A stretch of DNA of 64,000 nt from Lacisediminihabitans profunda (GTDB taxonomy: Bacteria > Actinomycetota > Actinomycetes > Actinomycetales > Microbacteriaceae), in assembly GCF_008040105.1 (NCBI RefSeq), contig NZ_VRMG01000009.1:310001-374000 (forward strand). The letters are read 5' to 3'. Position numbers and translations under genes: made by a program. The notes beneath the pieces are model-generated. The model saw only the letters and a program-made list of their open reading frames with translations. It made no database searches and had not been told where the DNA came from. Shown here in pieces: positions 26,857 to 46,371 of this stretch. The first letter of the stretch is position 1. Every line of letters starts with the position of its first letter.

Positions 26857-27963
26857 TCACGGGAAGATCAACACGGGCTTGACGGCGTCCCCGGACAGTG
26901 AATCCGCGAGCGCCCGATTGATCTCCCCGAATGGATAGCGGGTGATCAGCTTGTCCACAGGGAGTGCGCCAGACGACATGAGTGCGGCCATCTGTGGGAT
27001 GAGGAGTTGTGGATGCGCATCGCCCTCGAGAACCATTGACACTCGCCGCCCAGCGCCAAGCGATTGACTTAGATCAAGCGACACTTCTTGTCCGGGGATT
27101 GGTGCGCCCACTAACGCCCCATGCCCACGCACGGTCAGCGAATCAAGCATCGCTCGGAAGACCTCAGGTTTGCCGACCGCATCGATCGCAAAATCGACGC
27201 CCCGCCCCTGGGTGATCTCGCGGATCAACTCGACGGCATTCGCACCGCTACCGTCTACTGCATGCGAAGCGCCGAGGGCCAGCGACTTCGCCAATCGAGA
27301 TTTCAGCACGTCGATGAGAATCATCGCGGAGCATCCGCTGAGGCGGGCTGCGAGCAACGCCGACAATCCGACGCCGCCGGCCCCGAAGATTGCAATCGTG
27401 GATCCTGGCTTGGGGCGCAGGACGTTGAAGACCGTGCCTACCCCAGTCATGACGCCGCAGCCCAGGGGAGCGAGTACGTCGAGTGCCAGGTCCTTCGGCA
27501 CTTTCACCGCGAGGTGCTCTGAAACGTTGGTGTGCGTAGCGAACGACGATTGCCCAAAGAAGGAGCCGGCGATGGCTCCGTGGCCGTCGGAGAGAGGGCT
27601 CGAGCCGTCGGGTCGGAGTGCGCCGAAGTTGTACTGAGCGGTATGGATACAGTTACCGGGGAAGCCGGCCAGGCACGTTTCGCAGTGCTGGCAGTAGTTG
27701 AATCCGAGCACTACGTGGTCGCCCACTTGGAGCGTCGAGGATGAGTGCCCGACAGCCTCCACAATTCCCGCGCCTTCGTGGCCAAGAACGGCCGGAAGGG
27801 GGACTGGGTAGATCTGGTCCCGTGCGATGACGTCTGCATGGCAAATTCCCGTGGCAACAAGTCGAACTCGTACCTGGCCAGCGCGTGGTTCCTCGAGGAA
27901 CAGTGATTCCAGCTCCAGCGGTGCTCCACTGTGTCGAGCTACGGCCGCGACTATCTCTGGCAT
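26857..27963 (-). CDS. Zinc-dependent alcohol dehydrogenase, aryl-alcohol type (ADH 1)
   Basis: 368 residues of the medium-chain dehydrogenase superfamily. Catalytic zinc region TGICHADV and GHEGAGIVE, structural zinc cysteines in CQHCETCLAGFPGNC, and the NAD loop FGAGGVGLSA are intact. The closest well-known relatives are benzyl/aryl alcohol dehydrogenases such as XylB. It would oxidise a hydroxymethyl group to an aldehyde. The aldehyde dehydrogenase gene ends 4 bp upstream of its start, so they are one operon. A paralog lies at 29455-30561. Confidence 0.87.
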   Translation of the reverse strand: MPEIVAAVARHSGAPLELESLFLEEPRAGQVRVRLVATGICHADVIARDQIYPVPLPAVLGHEGAGIVEAVGHSSSTLQVGDHVVLGFNYCQHCETCLAGFPGNCIHTAQYNFGALRPDGSSPLSDGHGAIAGSFFGQSSFATHTNVSEHLAVKVPKDLALDVLAPLGCGVMTGVGTVFNVLRPKPGSTIAIFGAGGVGLSALLAARLSGCSAMILIDVLKSRLAKSLALGASHAVDGSGANAVELIREITQGRGVDFAIDAVGKPEVFRAMLDSLTVRGHGALVGAPIPGQEVSLDLSQSLGAGRRVSMVLEGDAHPQLLIPQMAALMSSGALPVDKLITRYPFGEINRALADSLSGDAVKPVLIFP

Positions 27964-27967
27964 CGTG

Positions 27968-29434
27968 CTACTTCAATATGGGCACAGCGAGTGATACTCC
28001 GTGCAGATAGAGGGTGCGCTGTTCGGTGAATGTGCGAATGGAGTCGATCCCGCCGAGCCGACCGAATCCTGACATGCCAACGCCACCGAAGGGAACGTGC
28101 GGTTCGTCTCCCACCGAGGGGCCGTTGACGTGCACGGCGCCCGCTCTTATCCGATTGGCGACGTTCCACGCGTGGCCGGCATCTCCCGACAGTACGCTGG
28201 CGATGAGCCCGAACTCCGTATCATTTGCCTGGCGTATCGCGTCATTCTCATCTATCGCACGCTGCACCGAGACGATTGGCGAGAACGCCTCCTCGTAGAA
28301 CAACTGCGCCGTCTTGCTCAGGCCGGCGAGCATCACTGGCGTGGCGTAGAGGCCGTCGGTGTCTCCCGATCCGGTGAGCCTCACAGCGCCGGTTGACTCC
28401 GCGTCGCGAACAAGGTGCCTGAACTGGCTGGCGGCCCGCTCGTTGATGAGCGGTCCGAGGTCGGTGATCGTCTTGCGCGGATCGCCTACCACCAGACCGT
28501 TGGACCTGGCGACCAGTCGATGCACCAGTTCGTCGTAGATGCGCCCGGATGCGATGATTCGGTCGGTTGCCATGCAAACCTGACCGGAATTCGCGAAGCT
28601 GCTGAAGACCAGCTGATCGGCGGCGACGTCCAAGTCGGCGTCGTCGAGGACGATGGTCGGATTCTTGCCACCGAGTTCCATCACAGTCGGAGTGAGATGG
28701 TTTCCCGCCACTTCCGCGAGTTGTCTGCCAACGAGAGTCGAGCCGATGAAGACAACTCGCCGCACGTGGGGATGGGCAATGGCCGCCCGAATTACCTCCC
28801 GACCCTCGCCGGGAGCCGATGTCAGTACGTTGATCACTCCAGAGGGGATTCCCGCGTGCATTAGGGCATCCGCGAGCAGATGACCAGCCGCATTCGGGGA
28901 TTCTTCACTCGGACGAAGCACCACCGTGTTACCCACCGCAAGTGCGATCGCGACGGATCGTGCGGCAAGCACGAGGGGCGCGTTCCACGGCACGATCGCA
29001 AGAACCACACCGGCAGGAACCCGGACGCTCAGATTGCTGGACGCCGGGTCGTGCGACGGAAGCAACTCGCCGGTCGACGTGCTGGTCAGCCCGGCGGCTT
29101 CGCGCAGCGTCGCGCAGGCTTCGGCCGTGTTCATCCCCGCCCAGCGGGCCGTCGACCCTGTCTCCGATGCCATTTCATCGGTGATCTCCCCCACGCGTGA
29201 CTCCAGATAGTCGGCGGCGGTGAGAAGCACCCGGCGTCTTTCGGTGAAAGGCGTGCCACTCCACCTGTCGAAGGCGTCGCTGGCCGCGCGAATTGCATTC
29301 TCGACATCGACAAGAGAGGCTGCGGCGACGTCGGCGATGACATCGCCCGTCACAGGTGACAATTTCTGGAAGGTTCGGCCATTCGACGCATCGACGTATT
29401 GGCCGTCGACAAGTAGCTTCAGCGAGGCTGTCAT
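27968..29434 (-). CDS. Aldehyde dehydrogenase, benzaldehyde/vanillin dehydrogenase-like (ALDH 1)
   Basis: 488 residues, full length. Glu in MELGGKNP (general base) and Cys in NSGQVCMATDR (nucleophile) are present, as are the NAD site PWNAPLVLAARS and FIGSTLVG. Aromatic-aldehyde dehydrogenases of the salicylaldehyde/vanillin group are the nearest familiar relatives. It sits between the two zinc alcohol dehydrogenases, so alcohol to aldehyde to acid is the natural reading. Confidence 0.87.
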   Translation of the reverse strand: MTASLKLLVDGQYVDASNGRTFQKLSPVTGDVIADVAAASLVDVENAIRAASDAFDRWSGTPFTERRRVLLTAADYLESRVGEITDEMASETGSTARWAGMNTAEACATLREAAGLTSTSTGELLPSHDPASSNLSVRVPAGVVLAIVPWNAPLVLAARSVAIALAVGNTVVLRPSEESPNAAGHLLADALMHAGIPSGVINVLTSAPGEGREVIRAAIAHPHVRRVVFIGSTLVGRQLAEVAGNHLTPTVMELGGKNPTIVLDDADLDVAADQLVFSSFANSGQVCMATDRIIASGRIYDELVHRLVARSNGLVVGDPRKTITDLGPLINERAASQFRHLVRDAESTGAVRLTGSGDTDGLYATPVMLAGLSKTAQLFYEEAFSPIVSVQRAIDENDAIRQANDTEFGLIASVLSGDAGHAWNVANRIRAGAVHVNGPSVGDEPHVPFGGVGMSGFGRLGGIDSIRTFTEQRTLYLHGVSLAVPILK

Positions 29435-29454
29435 TGGGTCACAATCTTGAAGGG

Positions 29455-30561
29455 CTAGAAAACAAGTACGGGCTTGATGGTGACACCGGCGGCGGCATCT
29501 GCGGCGGCGGCATTGATGTCAGCGAACGGGTAGACGCGCTCAAGGCGATCGATCGGGAACAAGCCACGACGGTAGGCATCTATCAACACCGGTATGAAGG
29601 TTTGTGGCTCGCTGTCACCAAGCGTGATGCCGCGAATGACACGCCCAGGGAGCATCCGGTTGACGTCGAAGGCCGCCGTCGACCCCGCGCGCGGCGCACC
29701 AATAAGCGCGCAAGTGCCGCCGACCGCCAATGAGAGGACGGATGCCTCGAGCACGCCCACGTTACCGGTCGTCTCTACGACGTAATCCACTCCGCGCCCG
29801 TCGGTGATGTCGAGAAGGCTGGAGGTCAGGTCATTGTCGGACGTGTCGATGACGTCGCTTGCGCCGAGTTGCTTCGCGAGTTCGAGCCTGGATTGCACGC
29901 GGTCGATCACGATAACTCGACTCGCCGGGGTCATGCGCGCGGCCATTGCAGCGGCCAAGCCCACAGCCCCTGCACCGGTCACCGCAATCGTCGAGCCCGG
30001 CTCTGGTCGCAGGACATTGAGCACAGCGCCGGCGCCGGTTTGAAACCCACAGCCGAGCGGCGCAAAAATGATGAGCTCATCGTTCGTCGTGTCGCTTGGC
30101 AACACGACTATGGATCGCTCGTCGACGACGGCAGTCTCGGAGAATGAGGACTGGCCGAAGAAGTGCGCGTTCAACTCGCCTGACGAATGTCTGAGCGTCG
30201 TCGTACCGTCCGCGCGCCGTCCGCCGAACAGATTGAGGATGAGGTGTGAGTCGCAGAGCGCAGGGTGGCCGTTTCGGCATCCGGCGCAGCGGCCGCAAGA
30301 GGTGAAACTGAGGAGAACACGGTCGCCCACCTTCGTGCGGGTCACACTCGTGCCGACGGCTTCCACGATTCCGGCGCCTTCGTGACCTAGAACACCAGGA
30401 AGCGGGAAGGGGGTACTGCCATTTGCGGCACTCAGGTCGGTATGGCACACGCCGGTCGCGACGAGATGAACGCGAACTTCATCGGAGCGAAGCTCATCGA
30501 GGTAAATCTCCTCGAGCGAAAAAGAATCGCCCTCTTTCCATACGATCGCCGCAGTAGGCAC
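29455..30561 (-). CDS. Zinc-dependent alcohol dehydrogenase, aryl-alcohol type (ADH 2)
   Basis: The GTG at 30561 is taken as start: AAGGGA lies 8 bp before it and it gives 368 residues, the same length as ADH 1; an ATG at 30591 would add 10 residues. Zinc motifs TGVCHTDL, GHEGAGIVE and CGRCAGCRNGHPALC and the NAD loop TGAGAVGLAA are intact. It is first in the operon with ALDH 1 and ADH 1, divergent from the MBL-fold gene. The pair may act on two different hydroxymethyl groups or substrates. Confidence 0.86.
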   Translation of the reverse strand: MPTAAIVWKEGDSFSLEEIYLDELRSDEVRVHLVATGVCHTDLSAANGSTPFPLPGVLGHEGAGIVEAVGTSVTRTKVGDRVLLSFTSCGRCAGCRNGHPALCDSHLILNLFGGRRADGTTTLRHSSGELNAHFFGQSSFSETAVVDERSIVVLPSDTTNDELIIFAPLGCGFQTGAGAVLNVLRPEPGSTIAVTGAGAVGLAAAMAARMTPASRVIVIDRVQSRLELAKQLGASDVIDTSDNDLTSSLLDITDGRGVDYVVETTGNVGVLEASVLSLAVGGTCALIGAPRAGSTAAFDVNRMLPGRVIRGITLGDSEPQTFIPVLIDAYRRGLFPIDRLERVYPFADINAAAADAAAGVTIKPVLVF

Positions 30562-30627
30562 TGGCAGGTCCCTTCGTCGAGAGTGCATCATCGCGCGCTC
30601 ATTCCCGTCACTATACCGAATGCATGT

Positions 30628-31715: not shown

Positions 31716-32678
31716 ATGACAAACACGCGCATTGATGTACACGCTCATTTCGTACCCGAGCACTATCGGCATGCCCTGGCTGCGGCGGGCCACGACCACC
31801 CGGACGGGATCAAGGCAATCCCCGAGTGGTCACCGGAATTGGCACTTGCCGCAATGGACCGCCTCGGAGTCGCCACTTCGCTATTGTCCATCTCCTCGCC
31901 CGGCGTCCACTTTGGTGACGACGCCAAGGCCGCTGAACTCGCCCGCCTGGTGAACGAGGATGCGATGCGCCTGCGCGAGCAGCACCCCGAACGCTTCGGA
32001 TTCTTCGCGAGCGTACCGCTCCCGGATGTGGATGCTTCGCTGTCGGAAATGAGGTTCGCACTCGACGATCTGGGTGCTGATGGCATCACCATCGAGACGA
32101 ATCACCACGGCATGTACCTCGGTGACGAGCGGCTCGAACCGATATTCGCTGAAGCATCCGCTCGAGAGACCGTGATTTTCATACACCCCACCTCCCCCCA
32201 TGGCGCGGGAGAGTTGGCGCTGGGCTACCCGAGGCCGATGCTTGAATTCATGTTTGACACGACCCGGTCGGTGACGAACTTGGTGCTCTCAGGGATGCTC
32301 CAGCGTCATCCGGGTGCCCGCGTCATCGTGCCGCACGCTGGAGCTGCACTCCCGGTGCTTGCGAACCGCATCGAGTTGCTTCTCCCGCTGCTCACTCCCG
32401 CCGGCGGCGCGACGCCCCCGAGCATTCGAAGTGCGCTTGCTCGATTGCACTTCGACCTGGCCGGTGCACCCGTGGACGAGTTACTGACTGCGCTGCTGTC
32501 GGTAGCCGACCCGACCCGGATTCATTACGGCAGCGACTATCCATTCACTCCTGCCGACGCGGCCGTTGGCCTCGCGGAGCGGCTTGAATCGACAACGTCA
32601 ATCGACGATGACATGCGGCAATCGTTCTTTGTCGATAACGCCCTCGCCTTGTTCCCGCGGCTGGGCGTCCTCGCGTGA
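31716..32678 (+). CDS. Amidohydrolase-family decarboxylase-like protein
   Basis: 320 residues from the ATG at 31716 (GAGGAGG upstream). It opens with the metal motif DVHAHFVP, and has IHPTSPHG, VPHAGA and GSDYPF, the pattern of the ACMSD/gamma-resorcylate/6-methylsalicylate decarboxylase branch of the amidohydrolase superfamily. These zinc or manganese enzymes remove CO2 from hydroxylated aromatic or muconate acids without a redox cofactor. A hydrolase of the same fold cannot be ruled out. It lies 26 bp after MBL 1 and just before iclR. Confidence 0.82.
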   Translation: MTNTRIDVHAHFVPEHYRHALAAAGHDHPDGIKAIPEWSPELALAAMDRLGVATSLLSISSPGVHFGDDAKAAELARLVNEDAMRLREQHPERFGFFASVPLPDVDASLSEMRFALDDLGADGITIETNHHGMYLGDERLEPIFAEASARETVIFIHPTSPHGAGELALGYPRPMLEFMFDTTRSVTNLVLSGMLQRHPGARVIVPHAGAALPVLANRIELLLPLLTPAGGATPPSIRSALARLHFDLAGAPVDELLTALLSVADPTRIHYGSDYPFTPADAAVGLAERLESTTSIDDDMRQSFFVDNALALFPRLGVLA

Positions 32679-32685: not shown

Positions 32686-33534
32686 ATGGCTAGTCCGGGG
32701 ATGAGCCGCCCTAAACTGGACGGCGTGGCTGAGACGACCGTTCCGAAGTTGCCCGACAAGCCCAGCGCGTACCGGGAGAGAAACAGTACTGCCGACCGCG
32801 CCCTCGACATCCTCGGTCTGTTCACAACTGAGCGCTTGCGGGTTTCCGCCGCCGACGTGGCGGCGGAATTGGGCGTTGCGCGCTCCACGGCCTATCGCTA
32901 TCTCGTCACGCTTGGCGCTGCCGGCTACGTAGAGGAGGATCCCGGCGGGGGATTCAGGTTGGGCTTGAAGGTGTTTGAGTTGGCTCGCTTGGCCAGGACC
33001 TCCTACGGTCTGTCGACGGTCGCGCTCCCTGTTCTTGAGGAGTTGAGCCGCAGCACAGGGGAGACCGCTCTCTTGACGCGGCGTTCTGGGGCCCGCGCAG
33101 TCTGTCTTGAGAAGGAAGAGCCATCCGGCCAGGGTATGCGCGTGTCGTACGAGCGCGGAAGCGTCATGACTCTCAACGCAGGCGCCTCGGCCTGGGTGCT
33201 CTTGGCTTGGGAGGATCCTGCTGTTGTTCGTGCGCTGCTGCGCGCAGGAGAACTTCCACGATTCACAGATGCCTCCGTAACGTCTGAATCCGCGGTAGAG
33301 GCTCGCCTCGCCGGCATAAGGAGAGACGGATACGCAATCTCCTATGGCGAACTCGATCCGGACGCAGTGGGAATCGCTGCGCCTGTGCGGGACGATCAGG
33401 ATCGCGTCGTCGCAGGCGTCAGCATTGTGGCAATGAGTCGCCGAGTACCGGCATCCCAGGTGAAGCAGCTTGTCGACGCTGTCATGGACGCATCGCGGAG
33501 GATCTCCGAAATGGTTGCACTCACCGCTCAGTAG
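32686..33534 (+). CDS. IclR family transcriptional regulator
   Basis: 282 residues if the ATG at 32686 is used; the ATG at 32701 or a GTG at 32725 would remove 5 or 13. The winged helix-turn-helix (RVSAADVAAELGVARSTAYRYL) is followed by the IclR effector domain ending RRVPASQVKQLVDAV. Many IclR proteins govern aromatic catabolism (PcaR, PobR, MhpR). Matching operators lie upstream of the MBL 1 and monooxygenase genes that flank its unit, and a strong terminator closes its own transcript. The effector is probably a pathway intermediate. Confidence 0.9.
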   Translation: MASPGMSRPKLDGVAETTVPKLPDKPSAYRERNSTADRALDILGLFTTERLRVSAADVAAELGVARSTAYRYLVTLGAAGYVEEDPGGGFRLGLKVFELARLARTSYGLSTVALPVLEELSRSTGETALLTRRSGARAVCLEKEEPSGQGMRVSYERGSVMTLNAGASAWVLLAWEDPAVVRALLRAGELPRFTDASVTSESAVEARLAGIRRDGYAISYGELDPDAVGIAAPVRDDQDRVVAGVSIVAMSRRVPASQVKQLVDAVMDASRRISEMVALTAQ

Positions 33535-33679: not shown

Positions 33680-35335
33680 GTGGACAACGAAGCGAAACAA
33701 TATGACGGCGATGTCATTGTCGTGGGCGCTGGTCCGGTCGGCATGACCGCAGCGATATTGCTCGCCAAGCTCGGGCTTTCAGTTGTCATTCTTGAGCAGC
33801 AGGAAACACCGAGTTCTGCCCCGAAGGCGATCAGCCTGGACGACGAATCGCTGCGGACCTATCAGGCCGCCGGTGTCGTGGATCGAGTGTTGTCGATTAT
33901 CGTGCCCGGCACCGGGACCATGTATTACGGCGTCGACGGCGAGGTCCTCTTCCATGCTCGAGGCCCGGTTCCATATCGACTGGGGCATCCGTTCAAGAAC
34001 CCATTTGCGCAACCAGACCTGGAGCGCGTGCTGCGCGACGTGATTCTTGAGCAGCCGGGAATTGACCTTCGCTACGGGTCGACCGTCTTCGAGCTGGACC
34101 AGGACATCGCCGGGGTCTCTATCGAGGTCGAAACGAGCGGTGGTGTGCGGTCCCTTCGCAGTAGATACCTCATCGGCGCAGACGGCGGACGTTCCACCAT
34201 TCGCGAGAGTCTCGGGATCACGATGACGGGCAAGAGCCACCCCGAAACCTGGCTCGTGATCGACACTCTCGAAGACGAGCACCAAGAGCGCTACGGCATG
34301 CACCACGGCGAGCCGGCTCGTCCGCACGTCATCGTGCCCGGGCTCGACGGACGATGCCGATACGAATTCCTTCTCTTCGATGGCGAAGGAACGGCGGGGC
34401 AAGATCCGGGCTTCGAACTGATGCGCACTCTGCTTGCCCCCTATCGTGACTTGCGTCCCGAACAAATCGAGCGCGCAGTGAATTACCGATTCAACGCGCT
34501 GAATGCCGATTCATGGAAAAGCGGACGGGCGTTCCTTGCGGGAGATGCGGCCCACATGATGCCGCCCTTCGCTGGGCAGGGGCTTAACTCAGGAATCCGT
34601 GACGTCACCAACCTGTGTTGGAAACTGGCCGCGGCGGTCAAGGGACGGCTCTCCGAGATCGCACTCGACAGCTATCAAGACGAGCGAAAGCCTCACGCGC
34701 AGGCAACAATCCGACTCTCGGAACGACTCGGCCGGGTCGTGATGACAACGTCGCCACGCCTGGCCGGCTGGCGTGATTCAACGATTCGCACCGCACTCGC
34801 GACGCCGGCGGGTCGCACCTATCTGGAAGAGATGCGCTACCGCCCCACCATTCGGTTCGAGAAGGGGCTCATCGTTCATTCGAACAGCCAACCGCGTATC
34901 GGCAAGGGCATCTCTCAGCCGCGCGTGTTCGATGCCGAATCGCACCGACCGCGGATGTTCGACGAGGTGGTCGCAGGGGGGTGGTCGATTGTGGGCGTCG
35001 ACGTCGATCCCGAGGATTGGGTGCTGGTGGCGCAACTTCGCGATCGCGCACACGCTCGCGCCATTCACATTCCTACTAGCGATTCGTTCCCGCGGTTGAC
35101 CGGTCGGGCCCGTGTGCTCGTCGACCTCGATGGAAGCCTCAACCGTGAATTCGAGTCCTTCGTCGGACATTTTGTACTGATTCGTCCAGACCACATCATC
35201 GCGGCAGTCTGGCGTCCCACCGAAACCGAACGGATTCTCCGGCAGACGCGCGAGTGGTTTCCCCACTCGGCGGTCGCGGCACGCCTCGTCGAACCAGAGT
35301 CCACCGTCACCACCAGAGCAGGAGTTGAAAGATGA
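33680..35335 (+). CDS. FAD-dependent aromatic monooxygenase, class A (MhpA-like)
   Basis: 551 residues from the GTG at 33680. The FAD motif GAGPVG (16-21), the DG motif IGADGGRSTIR and the GD motif FLAGDAAHMMPPFAGQG are complete, and the C-terminal thioredoxin-like domain typical of phenol/3-hydroxyphenylpropionate hydroxylases follows. It would hydroxylate a phenolic ring with NAD(P)H and oxygen, making a catechol. Its stop overlaps the extradiol dioxygenase start (ATGA), tying the two steps together. Confidence 0.88.
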   Translation: MDNEAKQYDGDVIVVGAGPVGMTAAILLAKLGLSVVILEQQETPSSAPKAISLDDESLRTYQAAGVVDRVLSIIVPGTGTMYYGVDGEVLFHARGPVPYRLGHPFKNPFAQPDLERVLRDVILEQPGIDLRYGSTVFELDQDIAGVSIEVETSGGVRSLRSRYLIGADGGRSTIRESLGITMTGKSHPETWLVIDTLEDEHQERYGMHHGEPARPHVIVPGLDGRCRYEFLLFDGEGTAGQDPGFELMRTLLAPYRDLRPEQIERAVNYRFNALNADSWKSGRAFLAGDAAHMMPPFAGQGLNSGIRDVTNLCWKLAAAVKGRLSEIALDSYQDERKPHAQATIRLSERLGRVVMTTSPRLAGWRDSTIRTALATPAGRTYLEEMRYRPTIRFEKGLIVHSNSQPRIGKGISQPRVFDAESHRPRMFDEVVAGGWSIVGVDVDPEDWVLVAQLRDRAHARAIHIPTSDSFPRLTGRARVLVDLDGSLNREFESFVGHFVLIRPDHIIAAVWRPTETERILRQTREWFPHSAVAARLVEPESTVTTRAGVER

Positions 35336-36258: not shown

Positions 36259-36261
36259 GAC

Positions 36262-38331: not shown

Positions 38332-38399
38332 TCCACTACCCGCCCCTTCCTGGGGAGCACCCTCACCAGCCGATGGATTGTGCACTGGAGGCGCAACGC

Positions 38400-39974
38400 A
38401 TGACAATATCCACACACGCTGACACCAGCGTCGACCCGGCATTGTTCCGGTCGCGGCTGATGATGTCGGGCATCAACAAGACGTTTGGCCGTAACGCCGT
38501 CTTGACGGATGCCGGCATCGAGGTGCTCCCCGGGGAGATCCATGGTCTCTTGGGTCAAAACGGCAGTGGCAAGTCCACTCTCATCAAGATCCTCTCGGGG
38601 CTGTACCGACCCGATGGTGAGGATGCCGTGATTCGGGTCGACGGGACCGACGTGGTACAACCGATCACACCGGTCGGCGTCATGAGTCAAGGCGTCACCA
38701 TCATCCATCAGAGTCTCGGACTGATTCCTGGACACTCGGTGACGGAGAATATCCGGTTAGGGACATTGTCCGGACGGCGATTTGGCCGTTTCATCGACTG
38801 GTCATACGAGCGTGAGCAGGCACGACTGACCCTCGAACGCATGCAGTCCGATATCGATCCCGACCGACTTGTCGACCTCTTGCACGTTGGCCAGCGAGCG
38901 ACCGTGGCAATAGCGCGAGCGCTACAAGTGATCGTGCCCGGATCAGGATGTGTGGTTCTTGACGAATCGACCCAATCGCTGTCTCGAGAGGTGCTTCCTG
39001 AGTTCTACGGCACGATCAGGCAACTGGCTCGGCAGGGCACGTCAATTGTTCTTGTCAGCCATCGATTGGATGAGGTCCTCACCCTCGCGGACCGGGTGAC
39101 AATCCTTCGCGATGGCCGCGTAACTGCGGCCGGCGTCGCTACCCACGGCATGTCGGAAGCGCAACTGTCGAAGGAGATACTCGGCCGCCAGTTGATCGCC
39201 TTCAACCGGGTCGAGAAGATGGCGATTCCTGATGCCGAGCCATTTGGCGCCCGAGAGCCCGCGGTCAGGCTCCGTGGAGTGACTGGAGAAGTGCTTCGCG
39301 GGGTCGACATCGATGTGCATGCGGGGGAGGTAGTCGGCGTAATAGGAGCGACAGAAGCAGGGCACGAGGAACTGCCGTACGTCATAACGGGGGCTCACTC
39401 GTCCACAGCGGCGGGGTCGATCGAAATCCACACCGCGATTCGGGACCTGGCTGAACTCAGAGTCAGCCAGTCTCTGGCCGATGGCGTCGTTCTAGTGCCT
39501 ACTGACCGGGCGGGCCAGGGTCTCGCACTCGGCGAGACCGCGATCAGCAACGTTTCGTTGCCTCGCGTGCGCGACAAGTCCCGTCATGGAATCCTTCGTG
39601 CCGCATGGCAGAAGGAGGAGTTTTCTGCTGCTTGCGCAATGTTGAACATTTCGCCTCCCGACCCCGATCAGCTCGCTGCATCCTTCAGTGGCGGTAACCA
39701 ACAGAAGCTGCTGTTGGCCAAATGGCTTCTTCAGAAACCTCGATTCTTCGTCCTTCACGAGCCGACTCAGGCCGTTGACGTGGGGGCGCGAGCGGACATA
39801 CTCCGCGCCATCAGCGCGATCGCCGCGGAAGGGGTACCCGTCCTCGTGAGTTCGATCGAGGCGGAGGACCTGTCCCTGATCTGCGATCGAATCATCGTGC
39901 TTCAAGACGGACAGAATTCCCGGGAGCTGACGAGGCCATTCACGCCCGAGCAGGTCCAGGAAGCCATCGGATGA
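38400..39974 (+). CDS. ABC transporter ATPase with two nucleotide-binding domains (RbsA-like)
   Basis: 524 residues from the ATG at 38400, which has GGAGG 8 bp upstream; an ATG at 38373 lacks one. The first half has Walker A GQNGSGKST (52-60) and Walker B VVLDEST (Ser replaces the usual Pro). The second half lacks a good Walker A (GATEAGHEE), as usual in this family, but has the signature FSGGNQQKLLLAKWL and HEPTQAVDVGA. It energises the importer with the permease that follows. Confidence 0.9.
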   Translation: MTISTHADTSVDPALFRSRLMMSGINKTFGRNAVLTDAGIEVLPGEIHGLLGQNGSGKSTLIKILSGLYRPDGEDAVIRVDGTDVVQPITPVGVMSQGVTIIHQSLGLIPGHSVTENIRLGTLSGRRFGRFIDWSYEREQARLTLERMQSDIDPDRLVDLLHVGQRATVAIARALQVIVPGSGCVVLDESTQSLSREVLPEFYGTIRQLARQGTSIVLVSHRLDEVLTLADRVTILRDGRVTAAGVATHGMSEAQLSKEILGRQLIAFNRVEKMAIPDAEPFGAREPAVRLRGVTGEVLRGVDIDVHAGEVVGVIGATEAGHEELPYVITGAHSSTAAGSIEIHTAIRDLAELRVSQSLADGVVLVPTDRAGQGLALGETAISNVSLPRVRDKSRHGILRAAWQKEEFSAACAMLNISPPDPDQLAASFSGGNQQKLLLAKWLLQKPRFFVLHEPTQAVDVGARADILRAISAIAAEGVPVLVSSIEAEDLSLICDRIIVLQDGQNSRELTRPFTPEQVQEAIG

Positions 39975-40031: not shown

Positions 40032-41030
40032 ATGAGCACCACACTTAGCGCTTCTCGCCCCCCAGAGCAGTCTGCAGCCAGGAGCTTGCGCCGACGAATC
40101 ACGTCCCGCTACGGCATCGTCGTCGTCTGGATAGCAATGTCAGCGATCTTCGCGGCGCTCGCGCCCCAGACTTTTCTCACATTCGGCACATTCCAAACGA
40201 TATTCGGGTCCCAGTCAACCCTGGTCTTCCTCGGGATGGCCGCGGTCTGCATTTTCGTGGTTGGCGAATTCGATCTCTCGATTGCCTCAATGATGGGACT
40301 GTCAGCCACCGTTCTCGCAGTTCTCGTGGTGAACCAGGGAGTGCCCGAATGGCTCGCCGTGATCATCGCTCTTGTGGTGGGCGCGGCGGCCGGCGCCGTG
40401 AATGGCTTCGTCATCGTGCGACTGGGAATCGATCCGATCGTGACCACATTGGGGATGAGCGTGCTGCTCTTGGGCGTCGCTCAGGCTATCTCCAACCTCG
40501 TGGCGGTCACCGGGTTGAGCTTCGGCCTCGCCAACCTGGCCGTGTACAACATTCTCGGCCTCCCGCTCGCCTTCTACTACGGGTTGATAGTGGCAATCAT
40601 TTTTGCCCTGGTCCTTGCGTTTACGCCCCTCGGACGCCACATGACCTTCGTCGGCGCGAACCGCGAAGTGGCCAGGCTGAGCGGGATTCCCGTGCAGCGA
40701 ATCCGTTACGGCGCCTACGTCTTTTCCGGCCTAAGTTCTGCTGTGGCGGGAGTTCTGCTCGCAGCGAGCGTGGGCGGCTTCGATTCCAGCACCTCAGGTT
40801 CGTATCTCCTCCCTGCCCTCGCCGCAACCTTCCTCGGCACGGCTGTGGTCCGCCCCGGAACCTTCAATCCGATCGGAACTCTGATCACGATCTACTTCTT
40901 GGTGACCGGCATCGTGGGCCTTCAGCTCCTTGGCTATTCAAGCTGGGTCAGCAACGTGTTCTACGGGGCAGCTCTGATCATCGCCGTCACGATCTCGACG
41001 ATCGCGCGCTCTCGACTGCTCCGACGATGA
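40032..41030 (+). CDS. ABC transporter permease (RbsC-like)
   Basis: 332 residues with about eight to ten predicted membrane segments and the BPD_transp_2 pattern (VVGEFDLSIASMMGLSA, NGFVIVRLGIDPIVTTLGM, GANREVARLSGIPVQRI). GGAAGG lies 8 bp before the ATG. Its stop overlaps an in-frame ATG at 41027 that could be an alternative start of the next gene. Only one permease is present, so it probably forms a homodimer. Confidence 0.9.
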   Translation: MSTTLSASRPPEQSAARSLRRRITSRYGIVVVWIAMSAIFAALAPQTFLTFGTFQTIFGSQSTLVFLGMAAVCIFVVGEFDLSIASMMGLSATVLAVLVVNQGVPEWLAVIIALVVGAAAGAVNGFVIVRLGIDPIVTTLGMSVLLLGVAQAISNLVAVTGLSFGLANLAVYNILGLPLAFYYGLIVAIIFALVLAFTPLGRHMTFVGANREVARLSGIPVQRIRYGAYVFSGLSSAVAGVLLAASVGGFDSSTSGSYLLPALAATFLGTAVVRPGTFNPIGTLITIYFLVTGIVGLQLLGYSSWVSNVFYGAALIIAVTISTIARSRLLRR

Positions 41031-41098: not shown

Positions 41099-42223
41099 AT
41101 GAATAGGGAATTCGTCGTCGCGACTCGCGTCGTGTCCGGTCTCGGGGCTCTCGGTGCTTTGCCCACCGAGTTGGTCAAGCTCTCGGCCGAACGCATCGTT
41201 GTCGTGGCTGACCAGGGCGTCTCCGACGTCGGACTTCTGGAAAAGATCCTGGCGCGCATACCCGACGGGTTGATTGTGGCTCGCTGTCTCGTCGGTCCGA
41301 ACCCCGACGTCCACACTGTCGAGCTCGCGTCTGAGCAAGCGCGCCTCGCTCGCGCCGATGTGGTGCTTGCAGTTGGTGGCGGAAGTGCGTTGGGTGCAGC
41401 GAAAGCGGTTGCCATCCGGTTGACGAATCCCAGAAGGATCGATGAGTACGAGGGGGTGGGGCGAGTGCCAAACATGCCGGCACCGACCGTCGCAGTCCCG
41501 ACGACTGCGGGCAGCGGAAGCGAAGTGTCCACTGTGCTGGTGCTGCATGAGGAGGGGCGCGCGGAAGAACTCGTCGTGCGCTCTCCCGGCTGTGAGCCGC
41601 GCGTGGCCATCCTTGACGGCACAGTGCTCCGCAATCTTCCGTGGGCTCCCCTGGTGTTCGCCTCACTTGACGCCTTGTCGCACTGCATCGAATCCACCTG
41701 GACGCGGCGCCAAACACTCTTCACCGAATCGTTGGCGCTGCGCGCCGCCCAGACGATCATCGATGCGCTTCCGGTCGCGGTCGAAGGTGTCGCTTCCGGG
41801 CGAAACGCGAGCGGCGAAAACGACGCCACTTTGCAACTGTTGCTCGAGGCGAGCTGTGCGGCGAATATGGCTTGCGGTAACAGCGGCCTTGCACTGGTGC
41901 ACGCGTTGTCGACTGCGCCGTCTGTGCACATTGCGCACGGGCTGCAAAACGGGATTCTCCTTCCTCATGTTGCCCTTTTCAACGCGGAAGTGACGACGGC
42001 GGCCGCCCGAGTGCTCGTGAGCCAGCTGGACTCCCTGTATGCCCGGATCGGGTTCACCGCGACTTTCAGCGGTGGAGCGGTCGGACCCGAAGAGAGCGAA
42101 GCGATGATCGCCGCCAGCACCGGACACCCGTTCAGAAAGAACAACTTGCGAGAGGCGACCGATGACGAGCTTCGATCCATTCTCCGAAACGCAGGTGCCG
42201 TCGTCGATCGGCTCAAGGGGTAA
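41099..42223 (+). CDS. Iron-containing alcohol dehydrogenase, maleylacetate reductase-like
   Basis: 374 residues from the ATG at 41099 (AAGAAGG upstream); an ATG at 41027 overlapping the permease stop would add 24. The NAD loop is AVGGGSALGAAKA, TTAGSGSEVS is the family motif, and the metal ligands are Asp191, His195, His268 and His280 (HGLQNGILLPH). Maleylacetate reductases share this type. It could reduce an oxo-acid made after ring opening, or act on a simple alcohol. No intradiol dioxygenase is nearby, so a standard hydroxyquinol route is not complete here. Confidence 0.82.
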   Translation: MNREFVVATRVVSGLGALGALPTELVKLSAERIVVVADQGVSDVGLLEKILARIPDGLIVARCLVGPNPDVHTVELASEQARLARADVVLAVGGGSALGAAKAVAIRLTNPRRIDEYEGVGRVPNMPAPTVAVPTTAGSGSEVSTVLVLHEEGRAEELVVRSPGCEPRVAILDGTVLRNLPWAPLVFASLDALSHCIESTWTRRQTLFTESLALRAAQTIIDALPVAVEGVASGRNASGENDATLQLLLEASCAANMACGNSGLALVHALSTAPSVHIAHGLQNGILLPHVALFNAEVTTAAARVLVSQLDSLYARIGFTATFSGGAVGPEESEAMIAASTGHPFRKNNLREATDDELRSILRNAGAVVDRLKG

Positions 42224-42227
42224 CACC

Positions 42228-43157
42228 ATGACCGCACATCTTCGGGCAGATCTACCTCCGGGATTCACGCGTTTCACGCACGGAGAGCTGCTCTGCACCG
42301 TCGTTTCTGATGGGGTTATCCAACTGGGCGCGGCGAGAGACAGCTTCCCGAACGCGGCGCCTTCGCAGGTTGATGAATTGCTGAGGCGGCACTACCTTCC
42401 AACCGACGCCGTGTACCTGAACCAAAACATCCTGGTAGTCGAAGCGGGCGACACGGTCGTCATGTTCGATTCTGGAGTCGGGGCCGATCCGGAGCTTGGG
42501 CGCAAGACCTTCGGCGACCAAACGGGAAAGACGATCCCGAACCTTCGTCTGGCGGGGATCGAGCCAGAAGACATCGACGTGGTGGCCCTCACTCACGCAC
42601 ATCCCGACCACGCGTGGGGATTAGCCGCAGCCGATGGCTCACGCCTGTACCCAAACGCGAAAATCGCAGTTGGCCGAGCAGACTACGACTGGTGGACTGA
42701 CCTGTCGCGTGTGGCCGAACAGCCAACCGAGCACCAGCGTGACCAGATCGTCGGCGCGCAGAAGAACCTCACCGCATACGAAGGCGATCTCATCTTGCTG
42801 AATGGAGGAGAAGCGATCGCCCCGGGCATCCGTGCAATCGCGACCCCCGGCCATAGTCCCGGCCACATGGTCTTCGAGATTTCCAGCGGGGACGACACCA
42901 TGGTCTGTTGGGGCGACCTGTGCCATCATCACGTCCTGCTGCTCGAGCATCCAGAATGGAACTTCGTTTTCGACCACGACGGTGCACGGGCGACCGATCA
43001 ACGCATCCGGATGTACGACTTCGTCGATTCGCAGCGACACGCGGTCTTCGGCTATCACTTCCCATTCCCCGGACACGGCCACTTGCGCCGTGATCTCAGC
43101 GGATTCACCTGGATCCCGTCGGATCTTCCCCGATCCCTGCCGGACGACGCGCCGTGA
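42228..43157 (+). CDS. MBL-fold metallo-hydrolase (MBL 2)
   Basis: 309 residues from the ATG at 42228 (AAGGGG 7 bp upstream). Metal motif HAHPDH (123-128), PGHSPGH, GDLCHHH and YHFPFPG are placed as in MBL 1 and the two proteins are close paralogs. It is 4 bp after the Fe dehydrogenase gene and overlaps the class II aldolase gene by 4 bp (GTGA), so it belongs to a tight operon. Keeping two copies in two operons suggests two related lactone or ester substrates, or separate induction. Confidence 0.87.
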   Translation: MTAHLRADLPPGFTRFTHGELLCTVVSDGVIQLGAARDSFPNAAPSQVDELLRRHYLPTDAVYLNQNILVVEAGDTVVMFDSGVGADPELGRKTFGDQTGKTIPNLRLAGIEPEDIDVVALTHAHPDHAWGLAAADGSRLYPNAKIAVGRADYDWWTDLSRVAEQPTEHQRDQIVGAQKNLTAYEGDLILLNGGEAIAPGIRAIATPGHSPGHMVFEISSGDDTMVCWGDLCHHHVLLLEHPEWNFVFDHDGARATDQRIRMYDFVDSQRHAVFGYHFPFPGHGHLRRDLSGFTWIPSDLPRSLPDDAP

Positions 43158-43861
43158 CATCGCCGTCGAGAGACTCGGAGACGCGGCAGCTAGTCGTGCA
43201 GGCATGCCGCGTGCTGAAAGCCAATGGCCACGATGACTACATCTGGGGGCATGTCACAGTGCGTGATCGGGCCGGACGCGGAATGTGGATGAAGCCGGCC
43301 GGACTCGGATTCGAAGAAGTAGAGGAGGACGACGTAATCCTGATCGCTGGTGATGGAGAGGTCATCGTCGGTGACAGACCGCGACACTCTGAGTGGCCAA
43401 TCCACTCAGCCATCATGGCGGCACGGCAAGACGTCAACTCCGTTGTCCACTCGCATCCCCCGTACGCGATCGCCCTCGCGGCGGCCGGCCATCGACTGCT
43501 CCCTCTCGCTCATGCGGGCACCCTCTTCTACCCGCCCGATGTGCCTCGCTTCGACCAGACGTCGAACCTGATCCTGACGACAGAGCTCGGCTCGTCCCTG
43601 GCCGAAGCGCTCGGATCTGAAAACGCCATGTTCATGGTCAATCACGGGATTGTTACGAGTGGCGCTTCCTTGAAGGACGCCGTGGTGCGCGCAGTCCTGC
43701 TGGAAAAGGCCTGCCAGCAACAGCTCATCGCTCTTCAGGCGGGCGCCCCTCTAATCTCACCAGGGCCCGAGGCCGCCCGAGAGAAGAGGGCAACAGTCTG
43801 GCCTCCCGCTCACCTCGACGCGCTCTGGGACTACTTAGTGCGCACCCTACCTGGCGATTGA
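43154..43861 (+). CDS. Class II aldolase/adducin family protein, possible aromatic-acid decarboxylase
   Basis: 235 residues, GTG start overlapping MBL 2. The metal motif SVVHSHPPYA (His99, His101), Glu80 in SEWPIH and a later His in VNHGIV mark the fold. The family includes fuculose-phosphate aldolases, but also decarboxylases of aromatic acids such as 3,4-dihydroxyphthalate decarboxylase and a pyridine-dicarboxylate decarboxylase. In an aromatic cluster a decarboxylase role is worth testing; an aldolase acting on the 4-hydroxy-2-oxo acid after ring cleavage is the other option. Confidence 0.8.
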   Translation: MTSPSRDSETRQLVVQACRVLKANGHDDYIWGHVTVRDRAGRGMWMKPAGLGFEEVEEDDVILIAGDGEVIVGDRPRHSEWPIHSAIMAARQDVNSVVHSHPPYAIALAAAGHRLLPLAHAGTLFYPPDVPRFDQTSNLILTTELGSSLAEALGSENAMFMVNHGIVTSGASLKDAVVRAVLLEKACQQQLIALQAGAPLISPGPEAAREKRATVWPPAHLDALWDYLVRTLPGD

Positions 43862-43886
43862 CCCATCCAAACGAGGAGTTACCCGA

Positions 43887-45371
43887 ATGACCAGCAGACC
43901 CGGAACCAACGCGACCCAACCCACCATCCCAATGTGGGTTGGCGGACGGGAGGCGTTCGCCTCCGACGGCGCGACCCTCGACAGCTTCAACCCGGCGACA
44001 GGTGAGGTGACGGCGCGGTTCCCCAACGCGACAGCGGACGATGTGGATTCGGCGGTTGCCGCTGGCATCGCGGCAAGTCGAGAGTGGAAGCGGACGACCC
44101 CGGAAGATCGTGGCAAGGTGCTCAGTCGCCTCGCGGAAATCATCGAGCGACATGCCGAAGAGCTCGCGCTGTTGGATGTGATCGACAATGGAAGTCCGAT
44201 CCGCGAGATGCGTCGCGATGCCGGCATGGCCGTGGATGCCCTGCGCTATTACGCCGGACTCGTTCTACATGTTCGGGGCGAGACGGTGCCAACCAGCTTC
44301 GACCGGCTGAATTTCACTTTGCTGCAGCCGTACGGCGTGGTTGCCCGAATCATCCCCTTCAACCACCCATTCATGTTCGCGGCTTCAAAAATCGCCGCCC
44401 CCTTGGCGGCAGGAAACGCGGTCATTGTCAAGCCGAGCGAGCACACCAGCCGCTCGGCGTTGAGGCTGGGTGAGCTCGCGCGCGGCATAGTTCCGGACGG
44501 CCTGCTCAGCATCATCACGGGTGAGGGCAGGGTCGCCGGAGACGCGATTGTCAGGCATCCCGAAATCCGACGACTCGCGTTCATCGGATCGGCGGACACG
44601 GGCCGAGCGATTCAGGCAGCTGCAGCGTCAGTCGCGGTCAAGAACGTCACGTTGGAACTTGGGGGGAAGAATCCGCTCGTGGTCTTTCCCGACGCGGACC
44701 TTGACCGGGCTGTTCTTGCGGCAAAGCGCGGCATGAATTTCACCTGGCAGGGGCAGTCCTGCGGGTCGACCAGCCGACTGCTTGTCCACCGTGACATTTA
44801 CAGCGAATTCATCGAGTCGTTGGCAGGAAGCATCGAGGGCATGAAGTCCGGCTCCCCAGTTGACGAATCGACTGAGACCGGGTCGATAGTCAACTCGCTT
44901 CAATACGACAAGGTGCGCTCGTATATCGAAATCGCTCACAAGGAAGGGTCGCGATTGGTCACCGGGGGGAACGTGCTGACAGACGGCGACTTCGCGAACG
45001 GATTCTTTGTTCGTCCCACGCTCTTCGCGGATGTCGATCCCCAGTCGCGACTGGCTCAAGAGGAGATCTTTGGGCCGGTTCTCGCGGCGATGCCCTTCAC
45101 CGGCTATGACGACGCATTGGCAATCGCGAACGGTGTGCGTTACGGACTCACGGCGAGCGTATTCACCGAAAGCCTCCGAACTGCCCACCGCTTTGCTCGA
45201 GATGTCGAAGCGGGGTATGTCTGGGTGAATGAGGTATCCAAGCATGTTCACGGGACGAGCTTCGGCGGAGTCAAGGACAGCGGGCTTGGACGCGAGGAAG
45301 GAATCGACGAGCTCCTGTCCTATACACAGTCGAAAAACGTGCACGTGAACTTCGAGTCGTCCGAGGCGTGA
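43887..45371 (+). CDS. Aldehyde dehydrogenase (ALDH 2)
   Basis: 494 residues, full length. General base Glu is in LELGGKNP, the nucleophile Cys in WQGQSCGSTSR, and FGPVLAAMPF is the later motif. It resembles betaine/aminomuconate-type aldehyde dehydrogenases more than ALDH 1 does. GAGGAG lies before the ATG. It could oxidise a ring-fission semialdehyde or a hydroxymethyl-derived aldehyde. It follows the class II aldolase gene by 25 bp. Confidence 0.87.
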   Translation: MTSRPGTNATQPTIPMWVGGREAFASDGATLDSFNPATGEVTARFPNATADDVDSAVAAGIAASREWKRTTPEDRGKVLSRLAEIIERHAEELALLDVIDNGSPIREMRRDAGMAVDALRYYAGLVLHVRGETVPTSFDRLNFTLLQPYGVVARIIPFNHPFMFAASKIAAPLAAGNAVIVKPSEHTSRSALRLGELARGIVPDGLLSIITGEGRVAGDAIVRHPEIRRLAFIGSADTGRAIQAAAASVAVKNVTLELGGKNPLVVFPDADLDRAVLAAKRGMNFTWQGQSCGSTSRLLVHRDIYSEFIESLAGSIEGMKSGSPVDESTETGSIVNSLQYDKVRSYIEIAHKEGSRLVTGGNVLTDGDFANGFFVRPTLFADVDPQSRLAQEEIFGPVLAAMPFTGYDDALAIANGVRYGLTASVFTESLRTAHRFARDVEAGYVWVNEVSKHVHGTSFGGVKDSGLGREEGIDELLSYTQSKNVHVNFESSEA

Positions 45372-45474
45372 CCTCGGCCGGTGGCGGGAGGCCAAGCCAC
45401 TCGTCCCGTCGGGTCCCACCGACAGTCCCTGCGACTTATCCCGCATTGCGAATGGAAGAAACAGAGTTCGGAAT

Positions 45475-46371
45475 ATGAGCAAAGTAATCGTCATCAGTGG
45501 AGCCGGTTCAGGATTCGGTGCCCTCGCTGCACGTGCGCTCGCACTCGCAGGCCACATCGTCTACGCCGGCATTCGCGAGTCCGAAGGCCGCAACTTGGCG
45601 CGCGTAGGTGAAGCGCGGGAGTTCGCCAAGGCACACAAGGTCAACTTGCGTACCGTCGAATTGGACGTCAGCGACCAGGCTTCGGTGGATGCGGGTATCA
45701 CATCCATCCTTGCCGAGACCGGCCGTTTGGACGTGGTCATCCACAACGCCGGTCATATGGTGACCGGCCCTGCTGAAGCGTTCACGCCCGATCAGCTCGC
45801 CGCGGTGTATGACTCGAACGTGCTCAGCACCCAGAGGCTCAACAGAGCAACGCTGCCTCATCTGCGAGCGCAAGGACATGGGCTTGTGGTGTGGGTGGGC
45901 AGCACCAGCACGAGAGGCGGCACCCCGCCCTACCTAGCGCCGTATTTCGCGGCTAAGGCGGCCATGGACGCCCTCGCCGTGAGTTACGCCGCCGAGTTGG
46001 TGCGCTTCGGAATCGAAACCACCATCGTTGTTCCTGGCGCGTTCACCTCGGGCACCAATCACTTTGCCACTGCCGGCGAGCCCGCCGACCTCGCGGTCGT
46101 AGCAGACTACGACACCAGGTACGCCGGACTGGCCGTTGAGATCGCAGCGAAACTGAGGGCAGCGACCCCGGCGGATGCCAGCGCGTCCATGGTCGCGGAC
46201 GAGATTGCGAGGATCGTCGCGCTCCCGCGCGGGGAACGACCGTTTCGAACCCACGTGGACCCACTAGACGACGGATCCCAAGAGGTGTCCGACGTTGCCG
46301 ACCAAGTCCGGGCCAATTTTCTGACCCGGCTCGGGCTTGGAGACCTGCTGAAGGTCGAGAAGTCAAAGTAG
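45475..46371 (+). CDS. Short-chain dehydrogenase/reductase (SDR 3)
   Basis: 298 residues. Cofactor loop SGAGSGFG, NAGHMVTGP, active site YFAAK and VVPGAFTSGTNHFA are shared almost word for word with SDR 1 (24132-25022). It is the last gene of the rightward operon, 104 bp after ALDH 2. It lies 260 bp inside the right att-like repeat while SDR 1 lies near the left end in the opposite direction. Function: oxidoreductase, substrate unknown. The 260 bp after it holds no supported gene. Confidence 0.88.
   Translation: MSKVIVISGAGSGFGALAARALALAGHIVYAGIRESEGRNLARVGEAREFAKAHKVNLRTVELDVSDQASVDAGITSILAETGRLDVVIHNAGHMVTGPAEAFTPDQLAAVYDSNVLSTQRLNRATLPHLRAQGHGLVVWVGSTSTRGGTPPYLAPYFAAKAAMDALAVSYAAELVRFGIETTIVVPGAFTSGTNHFATAGEPADLAVVADYDTRYAGLAVEIAAKLRAATPADASASMVADEIARIVALPRGERPFRTHVDPLDDGSQEVSDVADQVRANFLTRLGLGDLLKVEKSK

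What the first reader, a model, noticed from the sequence alone, without database searches (positions are those of the whole stretch)
26857..46371. Unassigned aromatic pathway with lactonase-like and two kinds of decarboxylase-like enzymes
The combination is unusual: two aryl-alcohol dehydrogenases, two aldehyde dehydrogenases, two MBL-fold hydrolases, an ACMSD/resorcylate-type amidohydrolase, a class II aldolase-family protein of the group that includes dihydroxyphthalate and pyridine-dicarboxylate decarboxylases, a class A monooxygenase, an extradiol dioxygenase, an FAH-family enzyme and a maleylacetate-reductase-like enzyme. One coherent order is lactone opening (MBL), oxidation of CH2OH to COOH (ADH, ALDH), decarboxylation, hydroxylation, meta-cleavage and FAH processing. 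That would suit a phthalide-type lactone, a hydroxymethyl benzoate or a related plant or fungal aromatic. I know of no described cluster with exactly this content.
Basis: inference. Interest (0 to 1): 0.75.

Follow-up and report, generated by a model that had tools for sequence, protein, structure and literature searches.

The report
Mobile aromatic-catabolism island beside tRNA-Ser
The cluster is a piece of apparently mobile DNA, parked between a tRNA gene and a copy of that gene's end, carrying genes that look able to import an aromatic compound, trim its side chain and break its ring; a bacterium isolated from lichen carries a matching island in a different tRNA gene, but what compound it eats is still unknown.

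Summary
The genes lie inside a 22,974-bp segment (23,683-46,656) bounded by a tRNA-Ser gene and a 22/24 copy of its 3' end. In a same-genus genome (G761) the tRNA is followed about 40 bp on by DNA that lies 71 kb away here. Naasia lichenicola (Microbacteriaceae) has a shorter counterpart, 13 genes in nearly the same order (one SDR differs in place), between a tRNA-Arg gene and an exact 45-bp copy of its end.

The core is IclR, MhpA-like monooxygenase, extradiol dioxygenase and FAH-family hydrolase; the last three match hcdABC (7-hydroxycoumarin degradation) in order (paper's text; sequences not compared). A second block (Fe-ADH, MBL2, class II aldolase, ALDH2) is absent from Naasia's island. 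'Maleylacetate-reductase-like' is not supported. The proposed step order is one of two open options: the decarboxylase candidates may act after ring cleavage. The substrate is unresolved.

The parts
23597..23682 (+). tRNA-Ser (TGA); its last 24 nt (23659-23682) are the left attachment-like repeat
   Evidence: ARAGORN; repeat D6
46633..46656 (+). 22/24 copy of the tRNA-Ser 3' end, right attachment-like repeat; with the tRNA itself the only places with <=5 mismatches in 103,391 bp
   Evidence: Markov control
46692..46901 (-). C-terminal tyrosine-integrase fragment just right of the right repeat (PF00589 positions 107-166 at 46692-46871, 38.1 bits, cut-off 27.1)
24132..25022 (-). SDRa, short-chain dehydrogenase (named by 66% identity to SDRc; pairs with SDRb, also found as a pair without the cluster)
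25067..25828 (-). SDRb, short-chain dehydrogenase
25928..26626 (-). TetR regulator
26857..27963 (-). ADH1, Zn alcohol dehydrogenase (44% to ADH2)
27968..29434 (-). ALDH1, aldehyde dehydrogenase
29455..30591 (-). ADH2, benzyl-alcohol-dehydrogenase-type Zn ADH
   Evidence: 5tnx 341 bits, function not named; 1f8f 328 bits; the next 215 bits
30727..31689 (+). MBL1, MPH/dihydrocoumarin-hydrolase-type metallo-hydrolase
31716..32678 (+). AMD, amidohydrolase 2 of the ACMSD/resorcylate decarboxylase fold, 2f6k subgroup
32686..33534 (+). IclR-family regulator (start approximate)
33680..35335 (+). FMO, MhpA-like class A FAD monooxygenase (start approximate)
35332..36258 (+). VOC type I extradiol dioxygenase
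36262..37095 (+). FAH-family hydrolase/decarboxylase
37171..38331 (+). ABC importer, periplasmic binding protein (Peripla_BP_4)
   Evidence: no PDB sequence match at E 1e-5
38373..39974 (+). ABC importer, double ATPase (AraG/RbsA type)
40032..41030 (+). ABC importer, permease (BPD_transp_2)
41099..42223 (+). Fe-ADH, closest to AdhE, NAD(P)-methanol dehydrogenase and lactaldehyde reductase (not maleylacetate reductase)
42228..43157 (+). MBL2, paralogue of MBL1 (56%; start approximate)
43154..43861 (+). ALDO, class II aldolase/adducin family (decarboxylase or aldolase)
43887..45371 (+). ALDH2, aldehyde dehydrogenase (best family HpaE, 443 bits, cut-off 638)
45475..46371 (+). SDRc, short-chain dehydrogenase (66% to SDRa)

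Best explanation
A 23-kb accessory island inserted at tRNA-Ser carries a meta-cleavage pathway for a hydroxylated aromatic with a benzylic CH2OH/CHO and a phenolic ester or lactone. Steps, all inferred from family: uptake by the sugar-type ABC importer; ester/lactone opening by MBL1; CH2OH to COOH by ADH1/ADH2 and ALDH1; FMO hydroxylation to a catechol or trihydroxybenzene; extradiol cleavage by VOC; C-C hydrolysis or decarboxylation by FAH; removal of the carboxyl group by AMD before or after ring cleavage; control by IclR. The second block (Fe-ADH, MBL2, ALDO, ALDH2) widens the substrate range or doubles the ester-opening and decarboxylation steps. The island nature and the hydroxylase-dioxygenase-FAH core rest on tool results; the chemistry is not shown.
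For: Direct repeats of the tRNA 3' end around the cluster: 22/24 here (0 of 100 Markov-1 simulations of 103 kb reach <=2 mismatches) and 45/45 in Naasia (only those two places with <=10 mismatches in 55.5 kb). Empty site in G761: about 40 bp after the tRNA the homologous DNA is own 94,907; by blastn none of 5 same-genus loci checked has island DNA in the 2.1-16 kb seen after the tRNA. Conserved Naasia order at 56-78% identity. Of 30 loci with VOC >=40%, FMO in 26, FAH in 24, IclR in 20. ADH2 next to benzyl alcohol dehydrogenase. MBL1 next to OPH/DHCH/MPH structures. AMD fold next to dihydroxybenzoate and ACMS decarboxylases.
Against: No substrate evidence at all. No integrase found inside the segment; the integrase fragment lies just outside the right repeat. 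In Naasia the island's GC (0.647) equals the DNA to its right (0.648; 0.684 in the 1.3 kb to the left), so composition does not mark it there; in the window the right side is also lowered (0.641 against 0.619 inside, 0.676 left). The empty site lacks 71 kb, not just the 23 kb between the repeats. The sugar-type importer is unusual for an aromatic acid and could point to a glycoside. MBL1 also matches an acylhomoserine lactonase structure (E 1.2e-37). The lower steps (hydratase, pyruvate aldolase) of a classical catechol meta pathway are not recognised among the proteins scanned. AMD shows no arginine near the place of ACMSD Arg47 (counted by hand).
Confidence: 0.62

Rival explanations
1. Post-cleavage decarboxylation: FMO and VOC act on a ring that still carries the carboxyl group (2,3-dihydroxybenzoate-like), and AMD and/or ALDO decarboxylate the carboxymuconate semialdehyde, followed by ALDH2 and FAH.
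For: OpaD (ACMSD-type) and DhbB (class II aldolase) do this step in two Pseudomonas pathways (PMC6362003 passages). AMD has the HxH/His/His/Asp metal set and an Arg at the human Arg235 place. Among 30 VOC loci ALDO is in 8 and AMD (>=40%) in 2, never both, as if interchangeable; the window has both. ALDO and ALDH2 neighbour each other in L043 and L125.
Against: No Arg seen near the ACMSD Arg47 place (hand count). 20 of the 30 loci show neither ALDO nor an AMD of >=40% (one of the 20, L053, has a 29% AMD-like match), so the core seems to work without it; some of these loci are cut short by contig ends. Foldseek ranks 2,6-dihydroxybenzoate decarboxylase above ACMSD.
Confidence: 0.3
2. One reading: lactone opening, oxidation of CH2OH to COOH, decarboxylation of the aromatic acid, then hydroxylation and cleavage (phthalide or hydroxymethylbenzoate type).
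For: In Amycolatopsis tucumanensis AMD (46%) overlaps an MFS gene that I read by eye as an aromatic-acid symporter and lies beside ADH2 (64%) and ALDH1 (58%). ADH2 is benzyl-alcohol-type. Dihydroxybenzoate decarboxylases are the nearest characterised folds to AMD.
Against: AMD has HxH where resorcylate decarboxylases have ExH (recalled). NCBIfam gives no family at all for AMD. No substrate evidence.
Confidence: 0.25
3. hcd-like route: MBL opens a dihydrocoumarin-type lactone and FMO/VOC/FAH degrade the resulting dihydroxyphenylpropionate.
For: hcdABC is FMO, extradiol, FAH in that order (PMC6222606). MBL1 is near dihydrocoumarin hydrolase structures. FMO's best NCBIfam models are MhpA-type, below cut-off.
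Against: No cupin, DUF1185 or FMN-reductase partner (hcdD, F, G) among the island proteins scanned. Benzyl-alcohol and aldehyde dehydrogenases are not needed.
Confidence: 0.12
4. Two pathways side by side: the Naasia-type set, plus an unrelated later insertion (Fe-ADH, MBL2, ALDO, ALDH2) for another compound.
For: The block is missing from Naasia's island; no ALDO or second MBL orthologue found in that genome (Fe-ADH and ALDH2 not searched genome-wide). MBL2 is as far from MBL1 (56%) as from Naasia's MBL1 (57%).
Against: ALDO is near VOC in 8 of 30 loci of other bacteria. All genes from MBL1 to SDRc are on one strand with gaps under 150 bp.
Confidence: 0.3
5. The tRNA repeats are coincidence and the cluster is ordinary chromosomal DNA.
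For: The T-arm sequence of tRNAs is generic; no integrase found inside; GC does not mark the Naasia island.
Against: 45-bp exact repeat in Naasia around the same genes; empty site in G761; 0 of 100 simulations.
Confidence: 0.04

Closest known systems
hcdABC of Pseudomonas mandelii 7HK4 (7-hydroxycoumarin)
   Same: FAD hydroxylase, type I extradiol dioxygenase and FAH-family hydrolase in the same order (PMC6222606: abstract, section 2.4 and Discussion)
   Different: No hcdD/F/G-like partners seen; here benzyl-alcohol and aldehyde dehydrogenases, an amidohydrolase, MBL enzymes and an ABC importer; sequences not compared
opa / dhb 2,3-dihydroxybenzoate meta pathways (Pseudomonas PTH10, P. reinekei MT1)
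   Same: Type I extradiol dioxygenase with an ACMSD-type or class II aldolase decarboxylase and an aldehyde dehydrogenase (PMC6362003 passages)
   Different: No Rieske dioxygenase here; the FAH enzyme is HpaG/HpcE-like; no tautomerase, hydratase or HOV aldolase recognised among the proteins scanned
ICEs and tRNA-targeted genomic islands carrying aromatic catabolism (e.g. ICEclc family)
   Same: Catabolic cargo beside a tRNA gene with a duplicated tRNA end
   Different: No conjugation gene or integrase among the proteins between the repeats; 15.7 and 23 kb only (ICE features recalled; PMC9960961 and PMC8704644 seen in the search listing only)
Aminobacter plasmid pANY103b VOC-FAH-IclR-MhpA-like block (NZ_AP017988)
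   Same: Same four families together (VOC 34%, FAH 49%, IclR 29%, FMO 35%)
   Different: Distant sequences; TRAP transporter, RraA, CoA transferase and dienelactone hydrolase instead of this set; no study of it was looked for

Membership tests
tRNA-targeted genomic island | Direct repeat of the tRNA 3' end at the far border | tested here: met
   22/24 at 46633-46656; 45/45 in Naasia
tRNA-targeted genomic island | Empty site in relatives | tested here: met
   G761: tRNA-Ser then own 94,907 after about 40 bp; 5 of 5 same-genus loci examined lack island DNA there by blastn. The missing stretch is 71 kb, more than the 23 kb between the repeats. For Naasia only the tRNA itself was shared with 8 congeners, so no empty site shown
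tRNA-targeted genomic island | Integrase gene | tested here: inconclusive
   Only a C-terminal fragment just outside the right repeat; a related one in a 307-aa frame at C161:412,560-413,030; none found by motif or fragment search in 55.5 kb around Naasia's island
tRNA-targeted genomic island | Deviating base composition | tested here: inconclusive
   Lower GC than the left flank here (0.619 against 0.676), little against the right (0.641); not seen in Naasia
tRNA-targeted genomic island | Excision or transfer | not testable with these tools
   needs experiment
HcdABC-type module | FMO, extradiol, FAH adjacent in that order | tested here: met
   window 33680-37095 against the paper's text
HcdABC-type module | Sequence orthology to HcdA/B/C | not tested
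   sequences not held in reach
HcdABC-type module | Partner genes hcdD, hcdF, hcdG (DUF1185-like, cupin, FMN reductase) | tested here: not met
   none among the island proteins scanned
MPH/dihydrocoumarin hydrolase group (MBL) | HxHxDH, His, Asp, His metal set and closest PDB sequences of this group | tested here: met
   (PDB closeness shown for MBL1; MBL2 by 56% identity and motifs)
MPH/dihydrocoumarin hydrolase group (MBL) | Lactone or aryl-ester hydrolysis | not testable with these tools
   needs assay
AidB AHL lactonase | NCBIfam NF047979 cut-off 360 bits | tested here: not met
   153.6 and 139.2 bits
ACMSD | Metal ligands HxH, His, His, Asp | tested here: met
   H8, H10, H156, H206, D273 (numbers of the scanned piece, without the start Met) invariant in 7 of 7 aligned homologues
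ACMSD | Both substrate arginines (human Arg47 and Arg235) | tested here: inconclusive
   Arg217 aligns with Arg235; no Arg near the Arg47 place, but that stretch lies outside the printed alignment and was counted by hand
gamma-resorcylate decarboxylase | ExH in place of HxH (recalled) | tested here: not met
   DVHAHF
3,4-dihydroxyphthalate decarboxylase PhtC | NF053537 cut-off 200 bits | tested here: not met
   ALDO 93.3 bits
Benzyl alcohol dehydrogenase | Sequence nearest to 1f8f among characterised structures, catalytic and structural zinc ligands | tested here: met
   ADH2; ADH1 only by 44% identity to ADH2 and motifs
Maleylacetate reductase | Closest characterised relative | tested here: not met
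   about 20 orders of magnitude weaker than AdhE, methanol dehydrogenase and lactaldehyde reductase

The most novel reading that the evidence does not exclude
A family of small tRNA-hopping catabolic islands in Microbacteriaceae, specialised for phenolic esters or lactones made by lichens or their fungi: MBL enzymes split the ester, side chains are oxidised and removed, and the resorcinol-type ring is opened by the hydroxylase-dioxygenase-FAH core.
Probability: 0.1. Interest if true: 0.7.

Novelty: new variant of a known kind. Interest (0 to 1): 0.45.

Why it matters
It moves the question from 'odd gene mixture' to a defined, bounded unit with a conserved counterpart in a cultured species, so the substrate can be sought by growth tests on one named strain. 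It also gives a testable case of non-homologous decarboxylase candidates exchanging places around one ring-cleavage core, and of catabolic cargo sitting in two different tRNA genes in actinobacteria.

Tried and rejected
Maleylacetate-type hydroxyquinol route: rejected, the Fe-ADH is not that family and Pfam showed no intradiol dioxygenase among the proteins scanned. Quorum-quenching AidB lactonases: NCBIfam cut-off missed. SDRa/SDRb as dedicated pathway enzymes: doubtful; the pair stands without other cluster genes (tblastn E 1e-25) in 4 of 4 regions looked at, out of 6 other family genomes with a match, though also beside the core in Conexibacter L053. pBAM2 (2,6-dichlorobenzoate) as the closest characterised relative: VOC 33%, FAH 44%; the passages read (PMC8460812) do not describe those enzymes, so nothing was drawn from it. 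Orcinol and lichen-depside literature searches gave no matching gene set. Passages of the Rhodococcus opacus 1CP paper (PMC13101518) gave nothing usable. The binding protein found no PDB sequence relative, so the importer's ligand stays open. Neighbour genes in loci other than the window were mostly read by eye from ORFs chosen with a GC-position rule and are less sure than the tblastn counts; one search's output was cut. The tblastx part was noisy and cut and was not used; only its blastn part was. One search scanned 8 triad loci for tRNAs: only L026 (Naasia) had one, so a tRNA neighbour is not a feature of the core in general.


Full report
What was checked. The window lies in an unnamed 4.0-Mb genome. 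They add an IclR regulator, a three-gene sugar-type ABC importer, SDRs and a TetR regulator.

The unit is an island. A tRNA-Ser gene ends at 23,682. Its last 24 bases recur at 46,633-46,656 with two mismatches. In 103,391 bp (window plus the rest of the contig to the right) these are the only two places with five or fewer mismatches. In 100 first-order Markov simulations of that length the best match had five or more mismatches; none reached two. The segment between the repeats has 61.9% GC, against 67.6% to the left and 64.1% to the right. At least part of the left flank is found in 13 of 13 genomes of the genus, own included. In five of them examined further, with 2.1 to 16 kb seen after the tRNA, blastn finds no island DNA. 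In four the next homologous DNA is own position 94.9-96.5 kb; in the fifth none is seen. In G761 it follows the tRNA after about 40 bp, so about 71 kb sits there in our genome, the catabolic cluster being the first 23 kb. A tyrosine-integrase C-terminal fragment lies at 46,692-46,901, just outside the right repeat; it is 80% identical over 41 residues to an integrase near the contig end.

The counterpart. A genome-contig scan with a VOC alignment found Naasia lichenicola YIM 131853, a Microbacteriaceae species isolated from lichen (title in the reference list of PMC10138632, passages). Its locus L026 carries ADH1-ALDH1-ADH2 divergent from MBL1-AMD-IclR-FMO-VOC-FAH-SDR-SBP-ATPase-permease at 56-78% identity; the SDR sits after FAH there and at the far end here. 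That set lies between tRNA-Arg and an exact 45-bp copy of its end, 15,659 bp apart; the 45-mer occurs only twice (<=10 mismatches) in 55.5 kb there. GC does not mark the Naasia island (0.647; right flank 0.648), and no empty site could be shown for it, since only about 50-110 bp around the tRNA are shared with eight congeners. Fe-ADH, MBL2, ALDO and ALDH2 are not in Naasia's island; its genome has one MBL match at E 1e-20 (the MBL1 orthologue) and only a distant class II aldolase, 31%. Among 398 genomes of the family only the window's and G701 (inferred to be Naasia from its coordinates) have AMD above 70% identity; 0 of 9 other same-genus genomes pass E 1e-60. Of 8 core-bearing loci scanned for tRNAs only Naasia's had one.

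The core and its company. Of the 30 loci whose VOC is at least 40% identical, FMO is in 26, FAH in 24, IclR in 20, ALDO in 8, AMD (>=40%) in 2 and MBL1 in 1 (a 29% AMD-like match in one more). AMD and ALDO never occur together there, but do in the window. In Nocardia, Actinokineospora and others the core is followed, in varying subsets, by an NMT1-like protein, a cupin-like protein (just under the Pfam cut-off), an MDR dehydrogenase, another MBL protein and ALDO. In Amycolatopsis tucumanensis AMD, ADH2 and ALDH1 accompany the core. Distant VOC/FAH/IclR/FMO sets exist in Proteobacteria. So the ring-cleavage core is a common module with exchangeable peripheral enzymes.

Chemistry, from families. 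ADH2 is nearest to 5tnx and benzyl alcohol dehydrogenase 1f8f. MBL1 is nearest to organophosphorus hydrolase, reconstructed dihydrocoumarin hydrolase and methyl parathion hydrolase. The last is described as acting on aryl esters and lactones (abstract start of PMC5052733) and as descended from a dihydrocoumarin hydrolase (PMC8222346 passages). FMO scores just under the MhpA-type NCBIfam cut-offs (437 of 546 and 388 of 390 bits). VOC and FAH carry the expected metal and catalytic motifs (motif meanings recalled). hcdABC has the same three enzymes in the same order and degrades 3-(2,4-dihydroxyphenyl)propionate (PMC6222606); an FAH-type rather than alpha/beta hydrolase suits a trioxo acid from a resorcinol-type ring (inference).

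The decarboxylases. AMD belongs to the 2f6k subgroup, for which no function was seen (E 2e-57). Its AlphaFold2 model (pLDDT 83, seven sequences) matches 2f6k first, then 2,6-dihydroxybenzoate decarboxylase, then ACMSD and LigW. The metal ligands are those of ACMSD, but only one of the two ACMSD substrate arginines could be placed. So 'decarboxylase' is likely, and which carboxyl group is open. ALDO misses the PhtC cut-off (93 of 200 bits).

Verdict. The pathway class is well supported, the step order and the substrate are not. No description of the gene set was found in the searches made, which cover only open-licence PubMed Central papers.

Noticed in passing
23751-23878: Truncated second copy of the 3' part of SDRb (89% and 83% to 25111-25236) at the island's left end, right after the tRNA.
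   Followed up: no
24132-25828; L053 17613-19337; L206-L209: SDRb-SDRa pair is 75-84% identical in four other Microbacteriaceae genomes and in Conexibacter, far more than the core genes (46-59% in Conexibacter): a separately travelling cassette.
   Followed up: partly
L031 8434-15546, L032, L038, L040, L042: Conserved actinobacterial gene run: FMO, VOC, FAH, NMT1-like protein, cupin-like protein, MDR dehydrogenase, another MBL protein, often class II aldolase; recalls hcd plus a lactonase.
   Followed up: partly
L030-L032, about 1.7-6.6 kb: A second FMO (NF004829 596 bits in L031, above cut-off 390), FAH (37-38%) and, in two of the three loci, a second VOC near the first triad.
   Followed up: no
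L014 10108-11562: Lignostilbene-dioxygenase-like gene (RPE65 family; under the NCBIfam cut-off) next to the IclR/FMO/VOC/FAH core, perhaps pointing to stilbene-derived substrates there.
   Followed up: no
47153-50167: GH-like protein with an MGH1/rhamnosidase-type domain; 1 of 12 other same-genus genomes (G761) has an 89% homologue, on another contig than its tRNA-Ser.
   Followed up: no
46657 to about 94,900 of the joined window-plus-contig coordinates: A further 48 kb to the right of the right repeat is also missing beside the tRNA-Ser in relatives: possibly a second, older island; contents not studied.
   Followed up: no
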